Assembly (NCBI GenBank): GCA_030640045.1 | Contig: DAOWKF010000046.1 | Span: forward strand, 1-10,528 | From: Candidatus Omnitrophota bacterium | GTDB lineage: Bacteria > NPL-UPA2 > BS750m-G34 | Direction of reading: 5' to 3' | Length of the DNA stretch: 10,528 bases | Part shown: positions 1-10,528 of the stretch, one piece after another | How the letters are laid out: each line of letters starts with the position of its first letter | How positions within the stretch are numbered: the stretch's first letter is position 1 | Notes under the pieces: generated by a model | Databases searched by the model: none | What the model saw: the letters and a program-made list of their open reading frames with translations, nothing else | Told to the model about the DNA's origin: nothing | Translations under genes and position numbers: made by a program

Positions 1-120
1 AAGAAAAAAATTATATTTACTTGCTTTGCAATGCAACTACAAACTGCAATACAATTTAATAAATCTTTTATAGATGAATGACATTTATACTATCACAATA
101 TGACAAACTAATGGAGGAAG

Positions 121-177
121 ATGAAGATGGATGAAAAACTTTTAAAGATGGTTAAATATCCACTTAAAAAAATGTAA
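121..177 (+). pseudogene. Short reading frame resembling the start of a Trm112/UPF0434-type protein
   Basis: This is an 18-codon frame (ATG at 121, a second in-frame ATG at 127, TAA at 175-177). A strong Shine-Dalgarno GGAGG at 113-117 sits 9 nt before the ATG at 127. From 127 it reads MDEKLLKMVKYPLKKM. This resembles the start of small zinc-binding Trm112/UPF0434 proteins (pattern MDxxLLxIxxCPxC), but Tyr replaces the first zinc Cys and no second Cys follows. A weak promoter may lie upstream (TTGCAA 26-31, 18 bp, TACAAT 50-55). The frame does not continue in any register after the A-run. The rest of 1-300 is AT-rich and shows no other gene. It could be a decayed gene start, a real micropeptide, or chance; the resemblance is recalled from family knowledge and rests on few residues. 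Confidence 0.25.
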
Positions 178-240
178 TTTTAAAACTGCTATAAATATAG
201 TCAATATTCTTTTTTACAAAAAAAAATTACAAAAAATTTG

Positions 241-269
241 TTGACAACTGAGTGACAATCGTGTATACT
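241..269 (+). promoter_or_regulatory. Sigma-70-type promoter of the antitoxin-toxin operon
   Basis: TTGACA at 241-246 is a perfect -35 box. TATACT at 264-269 is a 5/6 match to the -10 box, and the spacer is the optimal 17 bp. The first start codon is at 301, which leaves a leader of about 25 nt. The Shine-Dalgarno AAAGGAGG at 284-291 sits 9 nt before that ATG. Confidence 0.75.
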
Positions 270-281
270 ATATGGTGACAG
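242..281 (+). repeat. Helically phased TGACA repeats over the promoter, possible operator
   Basis: TGACA occurs at 242-246, 253-257 and 276-280. The offsets are 11 and 23 bp, close to one and two turns of DNA. The first copy is part of the -35 box and the third lies just after the -10 box. Phd/YefM antitoxins normally repress their own promoters, so these are candidate contact sites. Those operators are usually palindromic, though, and the only palindrome here is GTATAC at 263-268, so the assignment is tentative. Confidence 0.3.
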
Positions 282-300
282 AGAAAGGAGGCTGTGTAAT

Positions 301-588
301 ATGCGGTTTGTAACTGTAAGGGATTTGCGTAATAAACCAGCTCAGATTCGCCGCTCTCTTTTGGAAGAAAAAGATGTAATACTTACTTCAAATGGCAAGC
401 CTTTCGCCATTGTCACTTTAACTTCTGAAGATGAGCTAGAAAATTCGCTTGTTATGATGCGGCGTATTCGAGCAGAAAACGCAGTAACTTCTATACAAAA
501 GAATTCTATGGAAATAGGCACCGATCGACTTTCGTTAGATGAGATCAATGCCGAAATTGCTGCTGTAAGAAGAAAACGCAAGTCATGA
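301..588 (+). CDS. Phd/YefM-family antitoxin
   Basis: A 95-residue protein that probably neutralises the PIN toxin encoded next to it and represses the shared promoter. The N-terminal ~45 residues follow the Phd/YefM DNA-binding and dimerisation pattern: a VTVRDLRNKPAQI segment (residues 4-16), then DVILTSNGKPFAIVTL (25-40), matching the family's 'v.lT.nGkP.AvL' strand-turn-strand. The rest is charged and helical. Its basic tail (DEINAEIAAVRRKRKS) is the sort of segment that wraps the toxin. The ATG at 301 follows the Shine-Dalgarno AAAGGAGG with 9 nt spacing and the best promoter in the patch. The stop overlaps the next start as ATGA, so the two are translationally coupled. The family call is confident; toxin binding is inferred from arrangement. 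Confidence 0.85.
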   Translation: MRFVTVRDLRNKPAQIRRSLLEEKDVILTSNGKPFAIVTLTSEDELENSLVMMRRIRAENAVTSIQKNSMEIGTDRLSLDEINAEIAAVRRKRKS

Positions 589-995
589 AAATAGTGCTTG
601 ATACAAATGTAGTTGTGTCTGGCCTATTACATTCTTTTAGTACTTCTGGAGAAATTGTCAGGATGGTAACTTTGGGAGAATTGCAGCTTTGTTATGATGC
701 ACGTATTCTTTCAGAATATAAAGAGGTCCTTCTACGCACTAAATTTTCTTTTGACCCAACTAACGTAGATGATCTACTTGCCCAAATAGAAGCCTGTGGC
801 TTTGCAGTTGCTGCAGGACCACTTGCTAAACATCTACCTGACTTAGATGATGAGCCTTTCTTAGAGGTAGCGCTTACAGGAGGGGCTCGATATTTGGTCT
901 CAGGGAATCCAAAGCATTACCCGGGAAAAGACCGAGAAGGTATGGCAGTAGTATCACCAACACAGTTTTTAGAAAATTATCGGAAGCAGAAGTAA
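585..995 (+). CDS. PIN-domain RNase toxin (COG1569 / TIGR00305 type)
   Basis: A 136-residue PIN-domain protein, predicted to be a metal-dependent ribonuclease toxin. The opening MKIVLDTNVVVSGLL gives the first catalytic Asp (D6) and Asn (N8). Helix 2 carries SEYKEVL with E44. The acidic cluster LPDLDDEPFLEVAL (residues 84-97) supplies D86, D88, D89 and E90. It is followed by GGARYLVSGNPKHYP (99-113), where this subfamily has Asn at the position many PIN proteins fill with Asp. The length is normal for the subfamily. Its ATG (585-587) overlaps the antitoxin stop (586-588), the usual antitoxin-first order. I cannot see from sequence whether it cuts tRNA, mRNA or rRNA. There is no sign of truncation. 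Confidence 0.87.
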   Translation: MKIVLDTNVVVSGLLHSFSTSGEIVRMVTLGELQLCYDARILSEYKEVLLRTKFSFDPTNVDDLLAQIEACGFAVAAGPLAKHLPDLDDEPFLEVALTGGARYLVSGNPKHYPGKDREGMAVVSPTQFLENYRKQK

Positions 996-1059
996 GCATA
1001 CGACTCCCCCACTCAAAGCTGCTTAAATAATACGCCCTCCACAAAAGAAGATAATGTAA

Positions 1060-1088
1060 TTGACAGCTGCATTATATTATTATACAAT
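1060..1088 (+). promoter_or_regulatory. Sigma-70-type promoter of the winged-helix/nucleotidyltransferase module
   Basis: TTGACA at 1060-1065 is a perfect -35 box. TACAAT at 1083-1088 is a 5/6 -10 box after a 17-bp spacer. It lies in the 152-bp gap after the PIN gene. The next start codon is the ATG at 1148, with the Shine-Dalgarno AAGGAGG at 1135-1141. The module is therefore probably transcribed independently of the PIN operon. Confidence 0.65.
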
Positions 1089-1095
1089 GTCTATA

Positions 1096-1127
1096 TATTA
1101 TGGTCATATAAGCATATAATATGGTCA
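1096..1127 (+). repeat. Two 11-bp direct repeats in the leader, possible operator
   Basis: TATTATGGTCA at 1096-1106 and TAATATGGTCA at 1117-1127 match at 10 of 11 positions. They start 21 bp apart, two helical turns, so a dimeric regulator could contact both on one face. They lie between the -10 box (1083-1088) and the Shine-Dalgarno (1135-1141), where bound protein would block transcription. The winged-helix protein encoded next is the obvious candidate binder; this is inference. Confidence 0.4.
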
Positions 1128-1147
1128 ATTGTTTAAGGAGGGTAACT

Positions 1148-1477
1148 ATGCTGGAAGCACTTTTTGGTAATGTTGTAGTAGAAAAAATATTGCTTTTCAT
1201 ATTTGTTTATGAAGATGGTTATGCCCGAAAAATATCAAAAGTATATGGAATTCCGGTGAATGGTGTTCTGCAACAGTTACAACGCTTGGAAAATGGAGGA
1301 ATAATAGCAGGGCAGAATAAAGGAAGGACCCGGTTATATATGTTCAATCCGAGGCATCCTTTTTTAAAGGAACTTAAAGCATTATTACAGAAAGCGGTAG
1401 ATGTTCTTCCTCAAGCTGAGATTGAGAGGTATTATAGAATACGCACAAGACCGAGAAGAAAGGGTAAGCCACTTTGA
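1148..1477 (+). CDS. Small winged-helix DNA-binding protein
   Basis: A 109-residue ArsR-like winged-helix protein of the kind found beside small nucleotidyltransferase genes. The pattern EKILLFIFVYEDGYARKIS (residues 12-30), GIPVNGVLQQLQRLENGG (34-51) and a basic wing KGRTRLYMFN (58-67) fits helix-turn-helix plus wing. It is followed by PRHPFLKELKALLQKA (68-83), a conserved tail of this group, and a strongly basic C-terminus. I chose the ATG at 1148 over the in-frame ATG at 1121. The Shine-Dalgarno AAGGAGG (1135-1141) is 6 nt before 1148 and lies inside the longer frame, and family proteins begin MLEALFG-like. The stop overlaps the TTG start of the next gene by 4 nt. It probably represses this module and may act as antitoxin, as AbiEi does for AbiEii. 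It is much shorter than AbiEi. Confidence 0.75.
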   Translation: MLEALFGNVVVEKILLFIFVYEDGYARKISKVYGIPVNGVLQQLQRLENGGIIAGQNKGRTRLYMFNPRHPFLKELKALLQKAVDVLPQAEIERYYRIRTRPRRKGKPL

Positions 1478-2007
1478 AGAAAAAATTTAAAAATATTGAC
1501 ATAAAAGATTTAGCAATATTAGTAAGCTCTGAACTGGAAAAGAATGGTATAGATGCTGTTTTAGTAGGTGGGGCATGTGTTTCGATCTATACACATAATA
1601 AATATCTTTCAAATGATCTTGATTATGTAACATATTCTTCGATTGCTGAAATTAAACCAGTCTTAGCTAATTTAGATTTTTATCAGAAAAGCAGCAGGCA
1701 TTTTGAACATTGTAATTGCCCGTTTTTTATAGAATTTCCACCCTCACCTGTTTCTATAGGCAATGAAGTCTCAATAACTAAATTTAACAGAATAAAATCA
1801 CTTAAGTTATTCACGCCAACAGATTCTGTTAAGGATAGACTGGCAGCATTTTATCACTGGAATGACCTTCAGTCGCTAGATCAAGCCTTAATGGTAGCAA
1901 AAGTACAAAAAGTAAATTTAGAAGAGATAAAAAGGTGGTCTAAAGGAGAAGGGGTAACAGAAAAACATAAACGATTTCTAGATTTATTGAAAGCTAAAGA
2001 TAAATAA
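1474..2007 (+). CDS. Nucleotidyltransferase-fold protein, putative AbiEii/MNT-like effector
   Basis: A 177-residue protein with the signature of the DNA polymerase beta-type nucleotidyltransferase fold. VLVGGACVSIY (residues 29-39) gives the Gly-Gly turn, and YLSNDLDYVT (44-53) gives the paired carboxylates D48 and D50 (S-x-D-x-D, as in AbiEii). FFIEFPP (84-90) offers E87 as third carboxylate. A conserved KDRLAAFYHWND (120-131) follows, then a basic helical tail. Members of this fold transfer nucleotides to RNA or protein; several are growth-inhibiting toxins (AbiEii, MenT). The start is TTG at 1474, overlapping the upstream stop as TTGA, so translation is coupled. The pairing with a winged-helix gene and its own promoter suggests a toxin-antitoxin or phage-defence module. 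Activity and substrate are unknown. An alternative role is non-toxic tRNA or antibiotic nucleotidyl transfer. Confidence 0.7.
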   Translation: MKKKFKNIDIKDLAILVSSELEKNGIDAVLVGGACVSIYTHNKYLSNDLDYVTYSSIAEIKPVLANLDFYQKSSRHFEHCNCPFFIEFPPSPVSIGNEVSITKFNRIKSLKLFTPTDSVKDRLAAFYHWNDLQSLDQALMVAKVQKVNLEEIKRWSKGEGVTEKHKRFLDLLKAKDK

Positions 2008-2048
2008 TTTATCCCATAGGTTAAAATAAACATAAATAGTGGAGAGTT

Positions 2049-2132
2049 ATGTCTAAATTAAAAATATATACCTACGGAGAACCGGTCTTAAGAAAGGTTG
2101 CGAAACCTCTTTCAGATATAAAATGCGTCTAA
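2049..2132 (+). pseudogene. def: N-terminal stub of peptide deformylase
   Basis: A 27-codon frame (ATG 2049-2051, TAA 2130-2132) preceded by GTGGAGAG (GGAG 2041-2044). Its translation, with KIYTYGEPVLRKVAKPL at residues 5-21, matches the conserved start of peptide deformylase (typically '..lkIykYpdpvLRkkAkpv'). Normal Def is about 150-180 residues. The three metal-site motifs (GxGLAAPQ, EGCLS, HExxH) are absent here and in all later frames. After residue ~24 the frame enters the fmt start and stops 10 bp into it. def-fmt is a widespread operon pair, so this looks like an in-place deletion of the def body. The stub cannot deformylate proteins. It may still matter as a leader whose translation feeds fmt. 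A collapsed assembly is the main alternative. Confidence 0.8.
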
Positions 2133-3109
2133 TTTTTATGGGTACGGGTCCATTCGGCATTTCCTGTCTTGAGCATCTATGTTCAAGAAAAGATTTAGTT
2201 ATAGAGGCAGTTATAACTAAACCTCCCAGGCCGAGCGCTAGAGGCAGGATTCTAAGAGATACACCGATTAAAGAGGCAGCAATGAAAAAGGGATTAAAAA
2301 TCCTGGAGCCAGAGGATATTAAAAGCAAAGATTTTATTAAAGTTTTAGGGGAACTAAAGCCGGACATGTCTATTGTAATGGATTTTGGAAAGATATTACC
2401 CGGGGTTATATTTGATATCCCGGAATACGGCTCTATAAATATCCACGCCTCTCTCTTGCCTCTATATCGAGGAGCGAGCCCTATAAATTGGGCTATTATC
2501 AACGGAGAGAGGGAGACTGGCGTGACCTCATTTTTTATAGAAGAAGGAATGGATACAGGGCATATTATAAATCAGCGCTCATGTCCTATTTATCCTGAAG
2601 ATGACAGCGGGATATTAGAGGATAGGCTTAAAGATTTAGCTGTAGACGTCCTTAAGGAGACCCTTGAGAAGATAAAAAAAGGAGAGGTTAGAGCCAGGCC
2701 GCAGGATAATACAAAAGCTACCTTTGCCCCAAAGATAACATCCGGCACAGGAAAGATAAATTGGTCGTTAGAAGGAGAGAGGATCTGCAATCTTATACGG
2801 GGACTAAGCCCCAGGCCGGGGGCGTACAGTTTTTTTAAGAAAGGCAGGTTTATTAATGAAGTAGAAGAGGGTGCGATTTTAGTAAAGATATGGAAGACAG
2901 GAGCCCAGGGCGCCTCTCCCGGATCCAATCAAAGGAGTAGACCGGGATACGTCGAATCTGCTGATGCTAATGGCATCAAAGTTTTTTCCGGTAAAGGTAT
3001 TGTGAATATCCAGGAACTTCAGCCTGCCGGAAAAAAAAGAATGAGAGGTCAGGCCTTTTTGTCAGGATATGGCGAAAAAATGGCGAAAAAATGCCTTGAT
3101 TGTATTTAA
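2123..3109 (+). CDS. fmt: Methionyl-tRNA formyltransferase
   Basis: Transfers formyl from 10-formyl-tetrahydrofolate to Met-tRNAfMet for initiation. At 328 residues it has full family length. It opens with MRLIFMGTGPFGISCLEHL (family 'iFmGTpeFav.sLe.L'). The catalytic core is visible as SINIHASLLPLYRGASPI (residues 104-121) with N106 and H108, and EEGMDTGHII (140-149) with D144. The SLLPxYRG loop is intact. The C-terminal tRNA-binding domain begins about residue 205, with KINWSLEGERICNLIRGLSPRPGA (234-257) marking the usual junction. There is no Shine-Dalgarno before the ATG at 2123; the preceding bases are the end of the def stub, so coupling to the stub is likely. An 11-bp tandem duplication near the 3' end (3069-3090) has changed the last residues to an atypical MAKKCLDCI tail. 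Confidence 0.96.
   Translation: MRLIFMGTGPFGISCLEHLCSRKDLVIEAVITKPPRPSARGRILRDTPIKEAAMKKGLKILEPEDIKSKDFIKVLGELKPDMSIVMDFGKILPGVIFDIPEYGSINIHASLLPLYRGASPINWAIINGERETGVTSFFIEEGMDTGHIINQRSCPIYPEDDSGILEDRLKDLAVDVLKETLEKIKKGEVRARPQDNTKATFAPKITSGTGKINWSLEGERICNLIRGLSPRPGAYSFFKKGRFINEVEEGAILVKIWKTGAQGASPGSNQRSRPGYVESADANGIKVFSGKGIVNIQELQPAGKKRMRGQAFLSGYGEKMAKKCLDCI
3069..3090 (+). repeat. 11-bp tandem duplication at the fmt 3' end
   Basis: ATGGCGAAAAA is present twice, head to tail (3069-3079 and 3080-3090), followed by a third ATG at 3091. Because 11 is not a multiple of three, the duplication shifts the end of fmt. With one copy, fmt would end GYGEKMP and stop at TGA (3096-3098 region). With two copies it runs on to TAA at 3107-3109. 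The three ATGs fall in three different frames. Confidence 0.85.
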
Positions 3110-3135
3110 GAAAGTAAATAAAGTGGAAGTAGGCT

Positions 3136-3174
3136 ATCGGCCGGAGCCGATTTTGCTTGTCTTAAAGAGCAAGC
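3136..3174 (+). other. Two adjacent small hairpins between fmt and rpe
   Basis: The 74-bp gap contains ATCGGC (3136-3141), loop CGGA and GCCGAT (3146-3151), a perfect 6-bp stem followed by only three further T. It also contains GCTTG (3155-3159) pairing with CAAGC (3170-3174). The second ends 2 nt before AGGT (3177-3180), the only ribosome-binding-like sequence for rpe. The first is too weak in T-run to be a convincing terminator. Together they could be processing or translation-control structures, or spacer DNA. No gene is firmly supported in the gap. Confidence 0.3.
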
Positions 3175-3183
3175 TCAGGTAAA

Positions 3184-3861
3184 ATGAAGAAAATGGTTAA
3201 AATAGCGCCGTCAATTTTAGCAGCTGATTTTGCTAGACTTGGTGAAGAGGTTATAAGGGCGGAAAAGGCCGGCGGGGACATTATCCATGTAGATATCATG
3301 GACGGACACTTTGTGCCTAACCTGACTATCGGGCCGGCTGTTGTCGCGTCTCTTAAAAAGGTGACCTCGCTTCCGCTTGATGTCCATCTTATGGTAGAAG
3401 AGCCTGATAGATTTATTAATGATTTTGCCGAGGCAGGGGCATCTTATTTAACTGTCCATGCTGAAACCGGATATCATCTGGAGAGGACCGTAAATTTTAT
3501 TAGAGAAAAAGGCTGCAAGGCAGGGATTGCACTTAATCCGGCTACACCTGTAGAGAATATAAAGCTGGTTCTGGAAGAGATAGATCTGGTTTTGATTATG
3601 AGTGTAAATCCCGGTTTTGGCGGACAGGAATTTATTCCATTTTCTATTCCCAAGATCAGTCAGGTGAAGAAGATGGCTGAAGAAATAGGGAGGGAAATAG
3701 AAATAGAGGTTGATGGTGGACTAAATTTAGATAATGTCCGGGATGTGGTGATGGCCGGGGCAACTATCCTTGTTATTGGCACAACTGTGTTTAAGGCCAA
3801 ATCTATAAACGAGACCATGGCAGTGCTTAAAAAAAGGGTAGGCGAAGCCATGCAAGGCTAG
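3184..3861 (+). CDS. rpe: Ribulose-phosphate 3-epimerase
   Basis: Interconverts ribulose 5-phosphate and xylulose 5-phosphate in the pentose phosphate pathway. The 225-residue TIM barrel is full length. Visible signatures are PSILAADFARLGEE (residues 9-22), IIHVDIMDGHFVPN (33-46) with metal ligands H35 and D37 and catalytic-loop residues, LDVHLMVEEP (65-74) with H68, the phosphate-side loop VNPGFGGQEFIP (141-152), and EVDGG (175-179) with catalytic D177. The start is set at ATG 3184 with a weak AGGT 3 nt upstream; an in-frame ATG at 3193 (MVKIAPS) is equally compatible with family alignments. It lies between fmt and ffh, with 10 bp to ffh, so it belongs to the same transcript. Nothing is unusual in the protein. 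Confidence 0.96.
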   Translation: MKKMVKIAPSILAADFARLGEEVIRAEKAGGDIIHVDIMDGHFVPNLTIGPAVVASLKKVTSLPLDVHLMVEEPDRFINDFAEAGASYLTVHAETGYHLERTVNFIREKGCKAGIALNPATPVENIKLVLEEIDLVLIMSVNPGFGGQEFIPFSIPKISQVKKMAEEIGREIEIEVDGGLNLDNVRDVVMAGATILVIGTTVFKAKSINETMAVLKKRVGEAMQG

Positions 3862-3871
3862 GCCAAGCCAA

Positions 3872-5188
3872 ATGTTTGAGAATCTGAGCGAGAAATTCGG
3901 CCTTATTTTAAAAAAGATACGCGGGCAGGCGCATATTACCTTGGAAAATATCGAACCTGCCATAAAGGAAATAAAACTGGCGTTACTTGAGGCCGATGTA
4001 AATTATAAAGTGGTCAAGGAGTTTATAGAGGGTGTAAGGCGCGAGGCGCAGGGTAAGGAGGTACTTGGGAGTCTCACTCCCGGCCAGAAGATGGTCAGGA
4101 TCATACATGACAATATGGTCAATACCCTGAGCCGGGGAGAGGGATTGAATCTCGCAGGAACTCCTCCGGCAGTAATAATGATGGTGGGGTTACAGGGATG
4201 CGGTAAGACCACAACTTGCGGGAAACTCGCCTTGAGACTAAAAGGGAAGGGAAAGAAGGTCGGTTTGGTTGCGGCTGATTTTCGCAGACCTGCAGCTTTT
4301 GAACAGCTTGCGGCATTGGCCGGCGAATTAAATATTCCGGTCTTTGTAGAGAAAAATATAAAAAATATCAGGGTCTTGAGAAAGAGGGTCATGGACTGGT
4401 CGCGAGAAAATAGCCTCGAGGTACTTATTATAGATACCGCGGGTAGGCTCCATATAGACAGGGAATTAGTTCAGGAACTTGTCGATATGAAAAAAGAATG
4501 GACTCCTTCCGAGATTATTCTAATAGTAGACGCTATGACCGGACAGGAGGCTGTTAATGTGGCCGGAACATTCGATGAAAGGCTCAATATAACCGGTCTT
4601 ATCCTGACCAAGTTGGACGGCGACACCCGTGGCGGGGCTGCGCTCTCCATGCGCGCAACCGTGGCTAAGCCTATAAAATTTGCAGGGGTCGGGGAAAAAT
4701 TGAGAGACCTCGAAGAATTTCATCCGGAGAGAATGGCCTCCCGTATTCTCGGGATGGGAGATGTCTTGACGCTGGTTGAGAAGGTTGAGGGCGCGGTCAA
4801 CGAGCGGGAGATGAAGAAGATAGAGAAAAAGATGCGGCGTTTTGATTTTGACCTGGAAGATTTTTTAGGGGAATTAAAACGCATCCAAAAAATGGGGCCG
4901 ATGGAAGATCTCCTCAAGATGGTGCCCGGGGCAAATAAATCGAATATCTCTGTGTCCGGGAAAGACCTCAAGCATATGGAAGCTATTATCAGCTCCATGA
5001 CAGTAGAGGAGAGAAAGAATCCTGTTATTATTAATGGTTCCCGCCGTTCCCGTATCGCGAATGGAAGCGGCCGCTCGGTTCCCGAAGTAAACCGTTTGTT
5101 AAATCAATTTAGCGGATTCAAAAAGATGTCAAAGAATCTATCGCGTTTAGAAAAAGTTTTTAAAGGAGGAAAAATGCCATGGCTGTAA
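3872..5188 (+). CDS. ffh: Signal recognition particle GTPase Ffh
   Basis: The protein part of the signal recognition particle, which binds 4.5S/6S RNA and signal peptides and docks ribosomes at FtsY. At 438 residues all three domains are present. The N domain opens [19 protein letters not shown], with [11 protein letters not shown] (38-48). The G domain has P-loop [14 protein letters not shown] (106-119), [11 protein letters not shown] (136-146), DTAGR (188-192) and TKLDG (246-250), then [20 protein letters not shown] (272-291). The RNA-binding M domain shows [12 protein letters not shown] (342-353) and the [12 protein letters not shown] helix-turn (389-400) with VPEVNRLL. The C-terminus is short, without a long Met-rich tail. 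There is no strong Shine-Dalgarno before 3872. The stop overlaps rpsP by 10 bp. Confidence 0.97.
5162..5169 (+). promoter_or_regulatory. Strong ribosome binding site of rpsP inside ffh
   Basis: AAAGGAGG lies in the last codons of ffh, 9 nt before the rpsP ATG at 5179. It is the best Shine-Dalgarno in the operon. It allows S16 to be made at a higher rate than Ffh from the same mRNA, and it fixes 5179 as the rpsP start. Confidence 0.8.
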
Positions 5189-5427
5189 AAATCAGGCTTA
5201 AAAGGATGGGGACAATACGAAAACCATATTATAGGCTGGTAGTAGCGGATAGCAGGGTTTCCCGTAAAGGGGCATATATAGAAAATATCGGGTATTATCA
5301 TCCGCTTCGCAATCCAACTGTAGAGAAGGTAAATGCGGAGCGCGCAGTTTACTGGCTGAAAAACGGAGCCAAACCTACAGAATCTGCTTTGAAGATTTTG
5401 AAAAGGTGCGGAGTGAAATGCGGATAG
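5179..5427 (+). CDS. rpsP: 30S ribosomal protein S16
   Basis: A component of the 30S subunit body needed for its assembly. The 82-residue protein starts [22 protein letters not shown], continues [20 protein letters not shown] (23-42), and has [19 protein letters not shown] near the end; all are S16 signatures. The length equals that of many S16 proteins, although the usual lysine-rich tail is replaced by RCGVKCG. The ATG overlaps the ffh stop by 10 bp. Its own stop lies 10 bp inside trmD. In many bacteria khpA (KH domain) and rimM follow rpsP; here the reading frame passes directly into trmD. The odd Cys-containing tail partly derives from the trmD start sequence. Confidence 0.97.
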
Positions 5428-6092
5428 ATATTATTACTATTTTCCCGGAGATGTTTGAAGAGGTGTTTAGCCGCAGCATTATTAAGCGCGCCCGGGAAAA
5501 AGCATTGGCAGAGATAGCTGTGCATCAACTTCGCGATTGGACAGATGACCGCCATAAAACTGTGGATGAGCGGCCTTATGGAGGCGGGCCGGGAATGGTC
5601 ATGAAACCGGAGCCTATCTTTAAGGCAGTAGAGGACCTTCGGAAAAAATTTGGGAAAGGTGAAGTCTGTCTGCTTACGCCTCAGGGAAAAAGATTTAATC
5701 AGGAGATGGCACAAGACCTTTCCGGGAATAAACACCTGTATCTCATTTGCGGACATTATGAAGGAGTGGATGAGCGGGTAAGTGAATATCTTAATACCCG
5801 GGAAATTTCTATCGGAGATTATGTTTTGACCGGGGGAGAGGTCCCTGCAATGGTTTTGGTGGATGCAGTAGTAAGACTTATCCCGGGTGTGCTTGGAGAT
5901 AAGGATTCACCAGTAGAAGAATCCTTTTCCGAGGGTCTATTAGAATATCCCCAGTATACCCGGCCGGAGGAGGTCAGGGGATTAAAGGTTCCTGAGATTC
6001 TTCTCTCGGGAAATCACAAGGCTATTAAAAAGTTTCGCGATGAGATGCGGTTAAAACGCACGCAAAAACGCAGGCCGGATTTAAAGGAGTAA
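5418..6092 (+). CDS. trmD: tRNA (guanine-37-N1)-methyltransferase
   Basis: Methylates G37 of tRNAs with SAM, preventing +1 frameshifts; it is a trefoil-knot (SPOUT) dimer. I take ATG 5418, giving 224 residues starting [13 protein letters not shown], as in the family. A GTG at 5406 would add four residues. GGAG (5410-5413) lies 4 nt upstream. Signatures are [20 protein letters not shown] (43-62), [13 protein letters not shown] (109-121), and the knot [15 protein letters not shown] (131-145). These are followed by [10 protein letters not shown] (151-160), carrying the conserved Arg R153, and [10 protein letters not shown] (174-183). At the place of the catalytic Asp of E. coli TrmD (Asp169 in its EDSF motif) this protein has Glu, E168 in EESF. 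The C-terminal domain is compact. The 5' end overlaps rpsP by 10 bp and rplS starts 4 bp after. Confidence 0.96.
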
Positions 6093-6096
6093 AATT

Positions 6097-6468
6097 ATGG
6101 ATTTAATGAAAAAAGTCGAGGAGGGCGCTATAAAGAAATCGCCGCCTTCTTTCCGGGTAGGCGATACAGTTAAGGTGGATGTCACGATTAAAGAAGGGGA
6201 TAAGACACGTATCCAGCCGTTTGAAGGTATAGTTATAGGGAGAAAGGGCGGTGGGGTCAATGAGACCTTTACTGTCAGGCGCATTTCTTACGGGGAAGGA
6301 GTTGAGAGGATATTTTTTCTTCATTCCCCGCATATAAAGGGTATCAAGGTCTTGAGTCACGGCAATGTCCGTCGGGCAAAATTGTATTATTTACGCAGCC
6401 GTCTTGGTAAAAAGGCAAAAGTCAAGGGGAAACACGTAGTTGAAGAAGAGACAAAAGAGACCACCTAA
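6097..6468 (+). CDS. rplS: 50S ribosomal protein L19
   Basis: A 50S protein at the subunit interface. The 123-residue product carries the L19 signatures [20 protein letters not shown] (19-38), [20 protein letters not shown] (39-58), [15 protein letters not shown] (59-73), LHSP (75-78) and [10 protein letters not shown] near the end, followed by a charged tail. The ATG at 6097 has the Shine-Dalgarno AAAGGAG (6083-6089) with 7 nt spacing, placed over the trmD stop. trmD-rplS-rnhB is a common bacterial order. The 3' end overlaps the start of the rnhB-yraN gene by 29 bp. Confidence 0.97.
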
Positions 6469-7441
6469 GATTTTTGACCCTCTTTTTTATGAAAAAGACC
6501 TCTGGGGAAAAGGGGTTAGATTTATAGCGGGGATAGATGAGGCCGGCCGGGGGCCATGGGCGGGCCCGGTAGTAGCGGGGGCTGTGATTTTACCTAACGG
6601 GGTGGATCTCTCCGGTCTTCGTGATTCCAAGAGGCTAAGTCCTAAAAAGCGGGAAGAGTTTTCTGTGATAATTAAAGAAAAGGCTGTCGCTTATGGTATA
6701 GGCGTAATAGAATCAGAAGAAATTGATAATATCAATATCCTTCAGGCTACTTTTATGGCTATGAAAAAGGCCTTAGAAAAATTTCCTACCAGACCCCAAT
6801 TTTTGCTGGTAGACGGTAACCGCCGTATACCGGGGATAGATATACCGCAGCTTGCCCTGGTCAAAGGAGATTCATTAAGTCTTTCAATTCAAGCGGCGAG
6901 TGTCCTGGCTAAGGTAACCCGGGATGAGATAATGCAGAGACTCGATAAAGAATTTCCTTGCTATGGTTTTAGCCGTCATAAAGGCTATGGAACGAGGGAA
7001 CACGAGAGGAAGCTTAAGAGATTCGGGCCGATCCAGGGACATCGTTTTAGTTTTAAACCTGTAGAAAAAACTTCAAAAAATTTTGCTAAGAAGCAGCTGG
7101 GCAAATGGGGAGAAGAAAATGCTGCCCGATTTCTGAAGGATCATGGATATAAAATTTTGGGTCAAAATGTGCGCACAAGACTTGGTGAGGTAGATATCCT
7201 TGCAGAGGATAGCGGAAGAGTAGTATTTATAGAAGTGAAGACCAGAACTTCAGACAGGTTTGGCCGCGGAGAAGAGTCCGTCTCTTTACACAAGCAGAGG
7301 CGTTTGGTAAAGCTGGCATTACAGATTATGAAAAGCCGGAAGTTAATTGGCAGGGATTTTCGTTTTGATGTCCTTTCAGTGGATCGCGATAAAGGTAAAA
7401 AGTGGAAAGTGAAGCTGATTAAAAATGCATTTAATGCATAG
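6440..7441 (+). CDS. rnhB: Ribonuclease HII fused to a YraN/UPF0102 nuclease-like domain
   Basis: One uninterrupted 333-residue frame with two proteins usually encoded separately. Residues ~1-208 are RNase HII, which nicks at ribonucleotides in [22 protein letters not shown] (31-49) carries D33 and E34, followed by DSKRLS (62-67), LLVDGN (122-127) with D125, AKVTRDEIM (157-165) with D162, [11 protein letters not shown] and HRFSF. After a short linker of about ten residues, ~217-333 is YraN/UPF0102: [13 protein letters not shown] (220-232), then RLGEVDILA (247-255) with E250 and D252, and FIEVKTR (263-269) with E265 and K267. This is a restriction-endonuclease-like E..D..ExK site. The start is TTG 6440 (AAGGGGA 6424-6430 upstream); a stop codon lies directly before it and no in-frame ATG follows nearby. 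It overlaps rplS by 29 bp. rnhB and yraN are often neighbours; the fusion implies joint action on damaged or RNA-containing DNA. Confidence 0.93.
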
Positions 7442-7449
7442 GGGGAAAA

Positions 7450-7866
7450 ATGCCTGAAAAAAAAGTTTCAGAAAGACGGCGTTATGTCAGGATCGCTCCG
7501 CCAAAGCCCATACAGCTAAAATATCGTTTTGTTGACGACGATAGTGATCGCGGTGCGTCCTCAGAAAGCACCTTGTCCAGGAGTGTAGGGGGAGGGGGGC
7601 TTTTCCTTGAATTGCCGGAGTTAGACGCAGGCGCTATAGAGAAGTTGCTAAAAGGAGAGAAGAAGCTTTCTCTGGCAATTGTTATCCCTACTATGCCGAA
7701 GCCCATAAAGGCGTTAGCTAAGGTTATCTGGCTGGAAGGAAGGAAAGAAGGGGAGAGGCATTTCTACGGCGCAGGGGTCTCTTTTATTCGTATTGATGAG
7801 GATGACCGTAATGAGATACTCAACTATATTATAGATCTCTCCCTTCAGGAAAAGAAATCAAAATAA
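7450..7866 (+). CDS. PilZ-domain protein with altered c-di-GMP motif
   Basis: A 138-residue single-domain PilZ protein, with no signal peptide or membrane segment. The arginine motif is present as RRYVR (residues 10-14). The second motif, normally [D/N]-x-S-x-x-G, reads SRSVGG (43-48), with Ser in place of Asp/Asn, inside a Gly-rich SVGGGGLFLELP. Strands LSLAIVIP (73-80), IKALAKVIWLEG (86-97) and FYGAGVSFIRIDEDDRNEI (105-123) complete the barrel, which ends in a helix. PilZ domains bind cyclic di-GMP and pass the signal to partners; the Ser substitution may weaken binding. GGGGG at 7441-7445 precedes the ATG closely. The next gene encodes a related PilZ protein, so these are probably diverged tandem copies. 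Confidence 0.85.
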   Translation: MPEKKVSERRRYVRIAPPKPIQLKYRFVDDDSDRGASSESTLSRSVGGGGLFLELPELDAGAIEKLLKGEKKLSLAIVIPTMPKPIKALAKVIWLEGRKEGERHFYGAGVSFIRIDEDDRNEILNYIIDLSLQEKKSK

Positions 7867-7872
7867 ATTATT

Positions 7873-8250
7873 ATGGCACGATATTCCGGTCCGGAGAAAC
7901 GGCGACATAAGAGATTAAAAATTATCCTCCCGACAAAATACAGGCTTGGTACGGGAGGGAGCGCCCATCATGCCGAGACGATTGATATAAGTGAGGGGGG
8001 AGTTCATCTTGGACCGGTTTCTCTTTCTACCGAGTGGATGCTGGAAAATTGTGAGGTAGACTTAGAGATAATCCTTCCCCATCTTAGGCGGCACTTAAAA
8101 GCCATAGCTGAGGTTGTGCGGGTTGAAGGAAGTAAGAGACCCCATCATATCCATCATCGCCGCCGCCATAAAGTGCGGCTGAAATTCTGCAAAATCAGCG
8201 AAGAAGACAGAAAGACAATAAAGGAATTTGTCAAGGCTCCGCGTCTTTAA
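7873..8250 (+). CDS. PilZ-domain protein with canonical c-di-GMP motif
   Basis: A 125-residue single-domain PilZ protein. The first motif is RRHKR (residues 10-14) and the second is DISEGG (38-43), matching RxxxR and [D/N]xSxxG exactly, so cyclic di-GMP binding is likely. VDLEIILPHLRRHLKAIAEVVRVEG (62-86) corresponds to LSLAIVIP...AKVIWLEG of the upstream protein. KISEEDRKTIKEFV (107-120) parallels its DEDDRNEILNYI. A loop rich in His and Arg (HHIHHRRRH, 91-99) sits between the last strands and is unusual. No Shine-Dalgarno is evident before ATG 7873, only 6 bp after the previous stop, so it may depend on coupling. Its 3' end overlaps cysS by 23 bp. The output (motility, polysaccharide, transcription) cannot be told from here. 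Confidence 0.88.
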   Translation: MARYSGPEKRRHKRLKIILPTKYRLGTGGSAHHAETIDISEGGVHLGPVSLSTEWMLENCEVDLEIILPHLRRHLKAIAEVVRVEGSKRPHHIHHRRRHKVRLKFCKISEEDRKTIKEFVKAPRL

Positions 8251-9622
8251 TACCCTGGGTCAGAAAAAAGAAGCATTTAAACCTCTTAAGGAAGGCGAGG
8301 TTTGTATGTATATGTGCGGGGTGACAGTCTATGACAACTGTCACTTAGGGCATGGACGCGCCTATGTCAGTTTTGATGTCATAAGGCGGTATCTGGAATA
8401 TAGCGGCTATAAAGTTACCTATGTCCAAAATTTTACTGATATAGATGATAAGATTATAAAGAAGGCGCAGGAAGAAAATAAGACTACAGGGGATGTAGCC
8501 CGTATATACACTGAAAAGTATTTTAGTGTGATGGATAGATTGAATGTTAAAAGGGCTAGCTCCTATCCAAAGGCAACTGAGCATATTGATGAGATGGTTG
8601 GAGCAGTTAAAAAACTCATTAAGAATGGATTTGCGTATGAGATTGACGGAGATGTATATTTTAGAGTTAAAAGCTGTCCGTCTTACGGAAAGCTTTCAGG
8701 AAGAAAGTTAGAAGGGATGAGGGCCGGAGCAAGGGTAGAAGTAGACAGGCGCAAATATGACCCGTTAGATTTCGCCCTCTGGAAAAAGGCAAAGGAAGGG
8801 GAACCTTTCTGGCCGTCTCCGTGGGGAAATGGCAGGCCCGGGTGGCATATCGAGTGCTCGGTTATGAGCGCTAAATACCTGGGAGATGTCTTTGATATTC
8901 ACGGCGGCGGGATAGATTTGATATTTCCTCATCACGAAAACGAAATGGCCCAGGCCTACGGTATCAGCGGCAAAAGATTGGCAAACTACTGGCTCCACAA
9001 CGGATTTATTACAATTGATAAGGAAAAGATGTCAAAATCTTTGAAAAACTTTTTTACCTTAGAGGATATTTTTAAGAGATATGAGCCGGAGGTAGTTAGA
9101 TATTTTTTAGTCTCAACACACTACCGCAGTCCTCTTGATTTTAATGAAGAGAAGCTTAAAGAGGCAAGGACATCCCTGGATAGTCTCTACCAGACCTTTC
9201 GCCAGGTAGAGGAGATACAAAAAATGGGAAGTGCAAAAATTGGGAGTTTTTTGCCCGGAAAACAATTCCGAGAGGCCATGGACAATGACTTTAATACCTC
9301 CGGAGCATTAGGGATAATGCATGAACTCTCCGGAGACATCAATCAGTCCGTAAACAGGTGGTATAAAGAAAAAAAAGGAGGCCGGGAGATCCTCGAGAAG
9401 TGTGAACTCCTCAAGGAGTGGGGAGATGTGCTTGGAATCTTTTTCAAGAAAGAAAAAATTGAAGACAGCGTGGATGTCCAAAAATTCATAGCGGAGAGGG
9501 AAAAGGCCAGAAAAGATAAAGATTGGAAAAAGTCTGATGAGATCAGAAAAAAATTGCAAGAGATGGGGGTAATTATTGAAGACACCCCCGCAGGGACTAG
9601 GTGGTATGTACAGAAAAATTGA
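8228..9622 (+). CDS. cysS: Cysteinyl-tRNA synthetase
   Basis: A class I synthetase that charges tRNACys. The 464 residues match the usual length. The zinc-site Cys is in MYMCGVTVYD (C30); the other predicted ligands, by alignment with E. coli CysRS, are C210 (WHIECSVMS), H235 and E239 (PHHENEMAQ). The HIGH equivalent is HLGH (39-42) and KMSKS is at 267-271. FTDIDDKI (69-76) and the C-terminal DNDFNTSGALG (352-362) are also typical. The start is set at TTG 8228, because a stop codon lies in frame at 8219-8221 and the family start 'lRlyNTl' appears as RLRVFNTL. The AAAGGA at 8220-8225 is only 2 nt away, so initiation may be inefficient or coupled to the PilZ gene it overlaps by 23 bp. Its 3' end overlaps the opposing gene by 26 bp. 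Confidence 0.96.
   Translation: MSRLRVFNTLGQKKEAFKPLKEGEVCMYMCGVTVYDNCHLGHGRAYVSFDVIRRYLEYSGYKVTYVQNFTDIDDKIIKKAQEENKTTGDVARIYTEKYFSVMDRLNVKRASSYPKATEHIDEMVGAVKKLIKNGFAYEIDGDVYFRVKSCPSYGKLSGRKLEGMRAGARVEVDRRKYDPLDFALWKKAKEGEPFWPSPWGNGRPGWHIECSVMSAKYLGDVFDIHGGGIDLIFPHHENEMAQAYGISGKRLANYWLHNGFITIDKEKMSKSLKNFFTLEDIFKRYEPEVVRYFLVSTHYRSPLDFNEEKLKEARTSLDSLYQTFRQVEEIQKMGSAKIGSFLPGKQFREAMDNDFNTSGALGIMHELSGDINQSVNRWYKEKKGGREILEKCELLKEWGDVLGIFFKKEKIEDSVDVQKFIAEREKARKDKDWKKSDEIRKKLQEMGVIIEDTPAGTRWYVQKN
9547..9589 (-). terminator. Possible terminator of the minus-strand gene, inside cysS
   Basis: GGGGGT (9565-9570) pairs perfectly with ACCCCC (9584-9589) across a 13-nt loop. Read on the - strand, a run of seven T (complement of 9547-9553) follows about 11 nt after the stem. 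It lies just past the TAG stop (9597-9599) of the minus-strand gene. The distance between stem and T-run is longer than in a good intrinsic terminator, so it is only a candidate. Confidence 0.3.
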
Positions 9623-10528
9623 GGTGGAAAGTTTTTTTCTGACCAGGCCGTAATTTAGATAAGCGGCCTTCTTCTCGTTCTACCTTTCTTTGGAGAGGGT
9701 AATTTGTGCCCGGCTCAAGGCCGGTGACATAACCGTCAGAGCGCGCGCCGGTACATTTCCAGATAGTAAAACAAGGCAGTTCTTTAGAAGAATACGTGAT
9801 TGAAGAGGTTATGTCTTTATTTTTGTTAGTTAAAACTACAGTTGTAAGGCCTTTTTTGTTCTTTTTCATCTGAAATAAGTAACATTGCTCAACAAAGCCG
9901 GGAGTTGGCTTCTCATAGATATGATATTTTTTTAAACCCTCTCTTGCCCGCTCATTTACAGGTGTAATTTTTTTAACCGGAGCTATAAATTGGCTTCCTT
10001 CTTCTAATAGAGGAGGGCCAAAGTTAGTATGATAGAGGAGCTCGAATTCCTGAGAGGTCGCTCCCATGTTCTGCACGGTATCTGTAATAGAGATGGTATT
10101 ACTATTTGCAGTAGTTGTGATGGAAGTTGTAAGTTTAAGATTTGTGCCAAACATGGAGGCTTCCCGGACTTCACCCCAGAGGGTTATTTGAGATGGCTTT
10201 TTCTGACTAATATGAATGCCAAAACGAGATGCCGGGATATTGGAGACCTTGCCATGCAGGGTAAGGGGGATTGTATCCATCCCTGGCGGTCCAAATGATT
10301 CCATGCCGCAGCGGCAAAGCCATTCATTAAAACCGTCAAGCCACGCAAGACCGCCCCTTGCCTCCAGATTAATAAGGGAAGGATGGATAATTTCTTCTAC
10401 AGGAGATCTCCACCCAAGAGATATCCCGCGATATGCAGCAGAGAGTATATTCATGCCTCTTGTCGGGATAACAGTAAAAGAGAAGGCACCGTTATCTATT
10501 TCGACAATGTCTACTCCATCCTGTTTTC
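9597..10528 (-). CDS. DUF4432 / aldose 1-epimerase-like protein, 5' end outside the window
   Basis: A sugar-mutarotase-superfamily beta-sandwich protein of the DUF4432 group, whose substrates are mostly unknown. The frame is open to the window edge (309 residues visible). The internal ATG at 10454 is not the start, since the residues before it, VDIVEIDNGAFSFTVIPTRG, are family-like. Numbering from the edge, RGMNIL (23-28), GISLGW (34-39), GGLAWLDGFNEWLCRCG (58-74) and GPPGMD (79-84) are visible. They are followed by LTLHGKVSNIPA (88-99) with H91 as a likely active-site His, and later LLYHTNFGPPLLEEG. About 20-40 residues are probably missing. It ends TAG at 9597-9599 and converges on cysS with a 26-bp overlap. 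It is probably a separate transcription unit in carbohydrate metabolism; the exact reaction is not inferable. Confidence 0.85.
   Translation of the reverse strand, partial: KQDGVDIVEIDNGAFSFTVIPTRGMNILSAAYRGISLGWRSPVEEIIHPSLINLEARGGLAWLDGFNEWLCRCGMESFGPPGMDTIPLTLHGKVSNIPASRFGIHISQKKPSQITLWGEVREASMFGTNLKLTTSITTTANSNTISITDTVQNMGATSQEFELLYHTNFGPPLLEEGSQFIAPVKKITPVNERAREGLKKYHIYEKPTPGFVEQCYLFQMKKNKKGLTTVVLTNKNKDITSSITYSSKELPCFTIWKCTGARSDGYVTGLEPGTNYPLQRKVEREEGRLSKLRPGQKKTFHLNFSVHTT
9645..9680 (+). terminator. Weak terminator candidate downstream of cysS
   Basis: AGGCCG (9645-9650) pairs with CGGCCT (9664-9669) around a 13-nt loop, 23 bp after the cysS stop. It is followed by the pyrimidine-rich TCTTCTCGTTCT rather than a clean T-run. 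It also lies inside the coding sequence of the opposing gene, so the symmetry could be coincidental. Confidence 0.2.

What the first reader, a model, noticed from the sequence alone, without database searches (positions are those of the whole stretch)
2049..2132. Peptide deformylase reduced to an N-terminal stub that runs into fmt
The sequence shows an intact start region of Def (KIYTYGEPVLRKVAKPL) with a ribosome binding site. It continues without interruption into the fmt start codon and stops 10 bp inside fmt. The ~130 codons with the metal-binding motifs are gone, exactly up to the fmt ATG. Formylation by Fmt normally requires a deformylase, so the cell needs another def or has changed initiation. 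The stub may persist because fmt has lost its own ribosome binding site and now depends on stub translation, a leader-peptide role made from a dead gene.
Basis: partly seen in the sequence, partly recalled or inferred. Interest (0 to 1): 0.7.

Follow-up and report, generated by a model that had tools for sequence, protein, structure and literature searches.

The report
Truncated deformylase gene abutting fmt
In this draft genome of an uncultured bacterium, the gene for the enzyme that trims new proteins has shrunk to its first 25 codons and runs straight into the gene for its partner enzyme; compared with a relative this is a clear deletion, but whether it is real, and whether the cell has a spare copy, cannot be decided from a 71%-complete assembly.

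Summary
Window 2049-2132 reads MSKLKIYTYGEPVLRKVAKPLSDIK+CV*. Its first 25 residues equal, 25 of 25, the start of an intact 167-aa peptide deformylase (P0121) of a relative. The Fmt nearest to the window's (P0002, 82%) comes from a contig of the same source and length (3146 bp), so def and fmt are probably neighbours there. Here codons 26-167 (all three metal-site motifs), stop and spacer are missing, about 430 bp, up to the A of the fmt ATG. Fmt is intact; its start has no Shine-Dalgarno while the stub has one, so stub-coupled translation of fmt is plausible but untested. No other Def is in the assembly, but it is 71% complete and also has no M24 peptidase (the family of methionine aminopeptidase), so absence proves little. 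Of 60 genomes searched, only this one has Fmt without Def; a survey found PDF missing in 31 of 5,042 genomes, 29 endosymbionts. Two readings stay open: a real deletion in a cell with another PDF (favoured), or a metagenome artefact. About 650-735 bp downstream Fmt switches between two related lineages, which keeps the artefact reading strong.

The parts
2041..2046 (+). Shine-Dalgarno-like GGAGAG of the def stub
   Evidence: -6.4 kcal/mol with the anti-SD tail, 2 nt before the ATG
2049..2132 (+). def remnant: codons 1-25 of peptide deformylase, then two codons (C, V) and a stop read from fmt sequence out of frame
2121..2123 (+). deletion joint: last def-derived codon AAA, whose third base is the A of the fmt ATG
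   Evidence: alignment of the stub with P0121; about 430 bp missing relative to P0121 (142 codons + stop + unknown spacer)
2123..3109 (+). fmt, methionyl-tRNA formyltransferase, 328 aa, intact; no SD; N106, H108, D144 kept; start of the kind MRLVFMGT or MLRIIFMGT seen in relatives
   Evidence: (TIGR00460 256.3 bits, cut-off 201.5)
2771..2858 (+). switch in Fmt ancestry: upstream P0002-like, downstream P0003-like
301..995 (+). Phd/YefM-like antitoxin (below the Pfam cut-off) and PIN_3 toxin pair, AT-rich flank upstream of the stub
1148..2007 (+). winged-helix-like protein (weak hits) and DUF2204-type nucleotidyltransferase, upstream of the stub

Best explanation
A single deletion of about 430 bp in an ancestral def-fmt operon removed def from codon 26 to the fmt start, leaving a 27-codon ORF and an intact fmt (shown by sequence comparison with a relative's proteins). 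The deformylase encoded here is dead (shown: the part with all metal-site motifs is absent). I think most likely that the deletion is real, that the cell deformylates with another PDF in the unassembled 29% of the genome, or that only part of the population carries the deletion (inferred), and that ribosomes terminating at the stub's stop restart at the overlapping fmt ATG, which has no SD of its own (inferred).
For: 25 of 25 residues identical to intact Def P0121. P0121 and the Fmt P0002 (82% identical) both come from source jgi and from one contig each with a longest length of 3146 bp, so def and fmt are probably neighbours in the relative (inferred from equal lengths; contig names not seen). 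def and fmt are neighbours in 29 of 54 other genomes that have both (counted by hand from coordinates). The joint leaves fmt whole. Fmt keeps its catalytic residues and departs from otherwise uniform columns at 2 of 103, within the 0-10 seen for its 11 relatives. A tRNA-Met keeps an unpaired 1:72 end and three G-C pairs (read by eye), so formylation was in use until recently at least. SD -6.4 for the stub against 0.1 for fmt. PMC12690207 (passages): 48% of species have more than one PDF. Motif II of the two Defs nearest by search score to each other, P0121 and P0123, reads ERCLS rather than EGCLS (4 of 120 listed relatives have ERC), a faint hint of altered constraint on this copy.
Against: No second Def is in the assembly. 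No reads to check the joint. Fmt in the same contig is a mosaic, which raises the chance of a chimeric contig. The five same-phylum genomes with both genes have one PDF each, and none of the five has it next to fmt. Nothing shows the stub is translated; the stub-fmt region has no unusual fold (z 0.77). Two other genes of the window also lack an SD, so the lack in fmt is not unique.
Confidence: 0.53

Rival explanations
1. The joint is an artefact: a chimeric or collapsed metagenome (or amplified-DNA) contig, or a rare deleted variant kept by the assembler; the organism has a full def before fmt as its relative probably does.
For: def is essential where fmt works (E. coli, PMC4014445 passage); the survey in PMC12690207 found 31 of 5,042 genomes without PDF, 29 endosymbionts and 2 probably incomplete and also without fmt (passage). 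Fmt is a mosaic of P0002-like (206/230) and P0003-like (72/81) parts, so this contig has a second joint. 138 contigs, 3.43% contamination. The contig of the genus-mate G001 starts at ffh codon 29, so it does not vouch for the region.
Against: 2008-2200 has no other match in the assembly beyond 14-19 base hits at E 1.7, so no long repeat explains a collapse; the joint keeps fmt whole; a second Fmt mosaic with nearly the same break (P0008/P0010) suggests natural recombination in this clade.
Confidence: 0.35
2. The cell has no deformylase but still formylates: initiation or N-terminal processing has changed, and the stub is a dedicated leader peptide for fmt.
For: No Def in this genome or in its genus-mate G001. 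The M24 family, to which methionine aminopeptidase belongs, has no match in G000; its one match in G001 is best described as an Xaa-Pro-type aminopeptidase, so Def and methionine aminopeptidase are both unseen in both assemblies. fmt intact; formylatable initiator tRNA.
Against: The genomes are 71% and 58% complete, and only 18 tRNA matches were found in G000. G001 shows no Fmt either, only a weak match to part of the protein (E 1.8e-8). Of 60 genomes searched, own included, no other has Fmt (E <= 1e-20) without Def.
Confidence: 0.07
3. Formylation as a whole is being lost: def went first and fmt, without an SD, is now decaying.
For: def and fmt are lost together in several mollicutes (PMC4014445 passage); G008 and G010 lack both (G008 81% complete, G010 99%). 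The window Fmt has W313L and D213N at otherwise uniform columns.
Against: 2 of 103 such changes is not more than in the relatives (0-10); the window branch and the P0002 branch have 8 and 6 changes in aa 6-235; reading frame and active site are whole. Losing def before fmt is the harmful order.
Confidence: 0.05

Closest known systems
def-fmt operon (co-localised in 58% of species, PMC12690207 passage)
   Same: gene order def then fmt, same strand; probably kept intact in the relative with P0121/P0002
   Different: here def ends after codon 25 and its remnant overlaps the fmt start by 10 nt
Exiguobacterium def-fmt gene fusion (PMC12690207 passage)
   Same: def joined directly to fmt; those genomes also carry a second PDF
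   Different: the fusion keeps both activities in one protein; here the remnant is out of frame with fmt and has no catalytic part
Joint absence of DEF and FMT in hemoplasmas, phytoplasmas and some mycoplasmas (PMC4014445 passage)
   Same: def absent
   Different: there fmt is absent too; here fmt is intact
Translational coupling by termination-reinitiation at overlapping genes (PMC6728339 and PMC10666635, search listing with start of abstract only)
   Same: overlapping stop and start, downstream ORF without SD
   Different: overlap is 10 nt rather than the common 1 or 4; coupling not tested

Membership tests
Peptide deformylase (PF01327) | homology to the family over its N-terminus | tested here: met
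   weak by profile alone
Peptide deformylase (PF01327) | motifs I (GxGxAxxQ), II (ExCxS) and III (HExxH) | tested here: not met
   stub ends at codon 25; P0121 has the motifs at residues 44-51, 88-92 and 131-136. The stub is a remnant, not a deformylase
Methionyl-tRNA formyltransferase (TIGR00460) | score over the curated cut-off and both domains | tested here: met
   256.3 bits against 201.5; PF00551 and PF02911
Methionyl-tRNA formyltransferase (TIGR00460) | catalytic Asn, His, Asp (recalled from the E. coli enzyme) | tested here: met
   N106, H108, D144 invariant in 12 of 12 aligned
Leader ORF coupled to a downstream gene | upstream ORF with SD, stop near the downstream start, downstream gene without SD | tested here: met
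Leader ORF coupled to a downstream gene | translation of the downstream gene depends on the leader | not testable with these tools
   needs reporter or ribosome profiling
Leader ORF coupled to a downstream gene | conservation of the short ORF across species | tested here: inconclusive
   the one same-genus genome, G001, lacks the region; short ORFs were not sought elsewhere

The most novel reading that the evidence does not exclude
A bacterium that still formylates its initiator tRNA has lost peptide deformylase altogether, perhaps with methionine aminopeptidase, and reuses the first 25 codons of the dead gene as the translation-coupling leader of fmt, so either N-formyl proteins are tolerated or an unrelated enzyme deformylates.
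Probability: 0.06. Interest if true: 0.8.

Novelty: new member of a known kind. Interest (0 to 1): 0.36.

Why it matters
Fmt without Def would contradict the rule that deformylation is needed wherever initiators are formylated; the survey passage read here names no free-living case, and does not say whether the PDF-less endosymbionts keep fmt. If the deletion is real but compensated, it is a natural example of the canonical def being dropped in favour of another PDF, with its 5' end kept perhaps for the sake of fmt. If it is an artefact, it warns against reading gene loss from a single draft contig.

Tried and rejected
Chance similarity of the stub: rejected. Missing part of def moved or inverted elsewhere in the assembly: not found. 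Repeat-driven collapse at the joint: no other match to 2008-2200 beyond 14-19 base hits at E 1.7. Comparison with the genus-mate G001: its contig starts at ffh codon 29, and a DNA search with 1950-3900 gave 11 matches, all in the dispersed element at about 3086-3165 (40 of 46 candidates scored), so it says nothing on def. Named relatives by a genome-contig scan: 187 stretches matched a pattern, 2 encode relatives (33% identity), of no use for the locus. RNA structure over the stub-fmt start: none beyond shuffles (z 0.77). Rfam on the window: 0 matches at gathering scores. Relaxed selection on Fmt: not seen. Methionine aminopeptidase as a yardstick of completeness: I first took the M24 match of G001 for it; the check shows an Xaa-Pro-type aminopeptidase by its best hits, so it is unseen in both genomes. 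For this reason I lowered the best explanation from 0.55 to 0.53 and raised Fmt-without-Def from 0.05 to 0.07 (novel case 0.06). In one search the cysS row was taken at a wrong position (CTC) and is dropped; alternative starts of fmt (2138) and rpe (3193) were scored too. Papers: PMC12690207, PMC4014445 and PMC5954217 seen as passages (the last of no use beyond a table entry on fmt); PMC6728339 and PMC10666635 in a search listing only. The paper searches were made; none was aimed at proving that an Fmt-positive, Def-negative genome is not in print.

Full report
What is there. The ORF at 2049-2132 reads MSKLKIYTYGEPVLRKVAKPLSDIK followed by CV and a stop; it overlaps the fmt start (ATG 2123) by 10 nt in another frame. 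At E <= 1 both profile libraries give peptide deformylase as the one family for the 27 residues, in register with the N-terminus, with weak E-values because the piece is short (0.087 and 0.045). The search that settles identity is: the 24-residue piece, padded with X to 148, met 3 candidates sharing words in a database of about 5.8 billion proteins; 2 scored E <= 10, P0121 (E 1.3e-6, all 24 identical) and P0122 (E 1.7e-5), full-length Defs of 167 and 168 aa. With P0121 as query the own genome gives the stub (25 of 25 identical, E 3.3e-9) and nothing else at E <= 10. Five Defs (P0121, P0123, P0122, P0124, P0125) match the stub at 25, 23, 24, 17 and 21 of 25 positions and continue for 139-145 codons with recognisable motifs I, II and III.

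Relative with a probably intact operon. The Fmt closest to the window's, P0002 (82% identity), and P0121 come from the same source (jgi) and each from one contig, longest 3146 bp. I infer from the equal lengths that they lie on one contig; contig names are not shown. Among the other near relatives listed (Fmt P0003-P0012, Def P0122-P0125) no contig lengths agree (each list shows the best 120 of some 7,000 hits). def and fmt are neighbours in 29 of the 54 other genomes that have both, and in 0 of 5 such genomes of the same phylum (by hand). A published survey gives co-localisation in 58% of species (PMC12690207, passage).

The joint. Against P0121 the window lacks codons 26-167, the stop and the spacer: 429 bp plus the unknown spacer. 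The third base of the last def codon AAA is the A of the fmt ATG. The fmt start is of the kind seen in relatives, which begin MRLVFMGT (4) or MLRIIFMGT (3), one other start (P0007) and four... three records that start later at MGT.

Is there another Def? PF01327 finds none in the own genome, nor does P0121. But the assembly is 71.27% complete in 138 contigs. PF00557, the M24 family that includes methionine aminopeptidase and rings in 14 of 14 control genomes, has no match in it, and RF00005 gave 18 tRNA matches. The genus-mate G001 (58% complete) has no Def and no Fmt beyond a weak partial match; its one M24 match is an Xaa-Pro-type aminopeptidase by its best hits, not methionine aminopeptidase. 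Its contig starts at ffh codon 29 and is then colinear with window 3956-10528 at 92.8% identity. So the absence of a second Def is weak evidence; that Def and methionine aminopeptidase are both unseen in both drafts is either incompleteness twice over or worth a look. Among the 60 genomes (own included), 55 have Fmt at E <= 1e-20 and only the own one of these lacks Def; of the other five, G001, G008 and G010 lack Def too, while G003 and G039 have Def without Fmt at that threshold. The survey passage reports 31 of 5,042 genomes without PDF, 29 endosymbionts and 2 probably incomplete that lack fmt too, and 48% of species with more than one PDF.

Is Fmt alive? It passes the TIGR00460 cut-off, keeps N106, H108 and D144, and departs from columns uniform in the others at 2 of 103 positions, within the 0-10 seen for its 11 relatives. 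A tRNA-Met with an unpaired 1:72 end and three G-C pairs in the anticodon stem, features of a formylatable initiator (recalled), lies at G000:C58 37-113 (read by eye).

Translation of fmt. The stub has GGAGAG (-6.4 kcal/mol); fmt has nothing (0.1; its alternative start at 2138, 0.7), against a median of -3.5 at 125 ATGs that are not gene starts. Other starts in the window run from -12.4 to -0.9; PIN (-2.3) and the second PilZ gene (-0.9) also lack an SD, and both start at or within 6 nt of the preceding stop, so start without SD after a close stop is ordinary here. Coupling of fmt to the stub is therefore plausible; no result shows it, and the region has no unusual fold (z 0.77).

Grounds for doubt. 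Fmt is a mosaic: aa 6-235 match P0002 at 206/230 and P0003 at 160/230; aa 236-316 match P0003 at 72/81 and P0002 at 49/81. Both pairs are far off the trend of the 55 pairs without the window (z -3.7 and +5.0). Trees of the two parts place the window with P0002 (support 100) and with P0003 (support 90) respectively. A maximum chi-square test puts the break between aa 217 and 227 (0 of 2000 permutations); the same test with P0003 as the putative recombinant is also significant (break 213-220, 0 of 2000), with P0002 it is not (123 of 2000). I take the window as the recombinant because it alone departs from both partners; P0003 is not excluded. P0008 and P0010 show a like break (aa 197-236, 217-236 or 217-251; 0, 0 and 4 of 2000), so natural recombination at the conserved GLSPRPGAYSFF stretch is possible, but a chimeric contig is too. 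With no reads I cannot tell. DNA of window 1-2840 has no match in G001 or elsewhere in the own assembly at E <= 0.01 (40 of 42 candidates scored in G000), and 1-2048 is AT-rich (GC 0.346, against 0.446 for 2827-10528 and 0.416 in 65 kb of other contigs).

Verdict. The truncation as written in this sequence is certain. A real deletion in a cell that has another PDF, or in part of a population, is the best reading (0.53); artefact 0.35; Fmt without any deformylase 0.07; loss of formylation 0.05.

Noticed in passing
window 2771-2858: Fmt is a mosaic: residues 6-235 P0002-like (206/230), residues 236-316 P0003-like (72/81); the metagenome proteins P0008 and P0010 show a similar break, so either this conserved stretch is a recombination spot in the clade or it breeds chimeric contigs.
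   Followed up: partly
window 3095-3159: Dispersed element of about 65 bp with a hairpin (commonly ATCGGCC-GAA-GGCCGAT) followed by TTTT, and by TTGAC in 5 of 17 aligned copies; with one copy as query 11 places in G000, 23 in G001 and 0 in 7 other genomes of the phylum; two partial copies in tandem at G000:C40:526-609. No Rfam match at gathering scores in the window; six sub-threshold hits for another copy. The window copy does not fold better than shuffles (z -0.36). May combine a terminator and a promoter.
   Followed up: partly
G000 and G001 (M24 family): Methionine aminopeptidase is unseen in both drafts of this genus: no PF00557 match in G000, and the one match in G001 (L084:772-1848) is an Xaa-Pro-type aminopeptidase by its best hits. 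Incompleteness is the simple reading; with def broken too, the N-terminal processing of this genus deserves a complete genome.
   Followed up: partly
window 6440-7441: Ribonuclease HII and the UPF0102 (YraN-like) domain are joined in one 333-aa frame.
   Followed up: no
window 7450-8250: Two PilZ-domain genes in a row lie between the RNase HII-UPF0102 frame and cysS (name of cysS by eye).
   Followed up: no
window 301-2007: AT-rich stretch with a Phd/YefM-like and PIN_3 pair and a winged-helix-like/nucleotidyltransferase (DUF2204) pair directly upstream of the def stub, without match in the genus-mate.
   Followed up: partly
P0121, P0123 (relatives' Def): Motif II reads ERCLS instead of EGCLS in the two Defs P0121 and P0123; 4 of the 120 listed proteins have ERC.
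   Followed up: partly
window 3059-3106: The window Fmt has L for the otherwise uniform W313 and 11 residues beyond the GYG with which its nearest relatives end.
   Followed up: no
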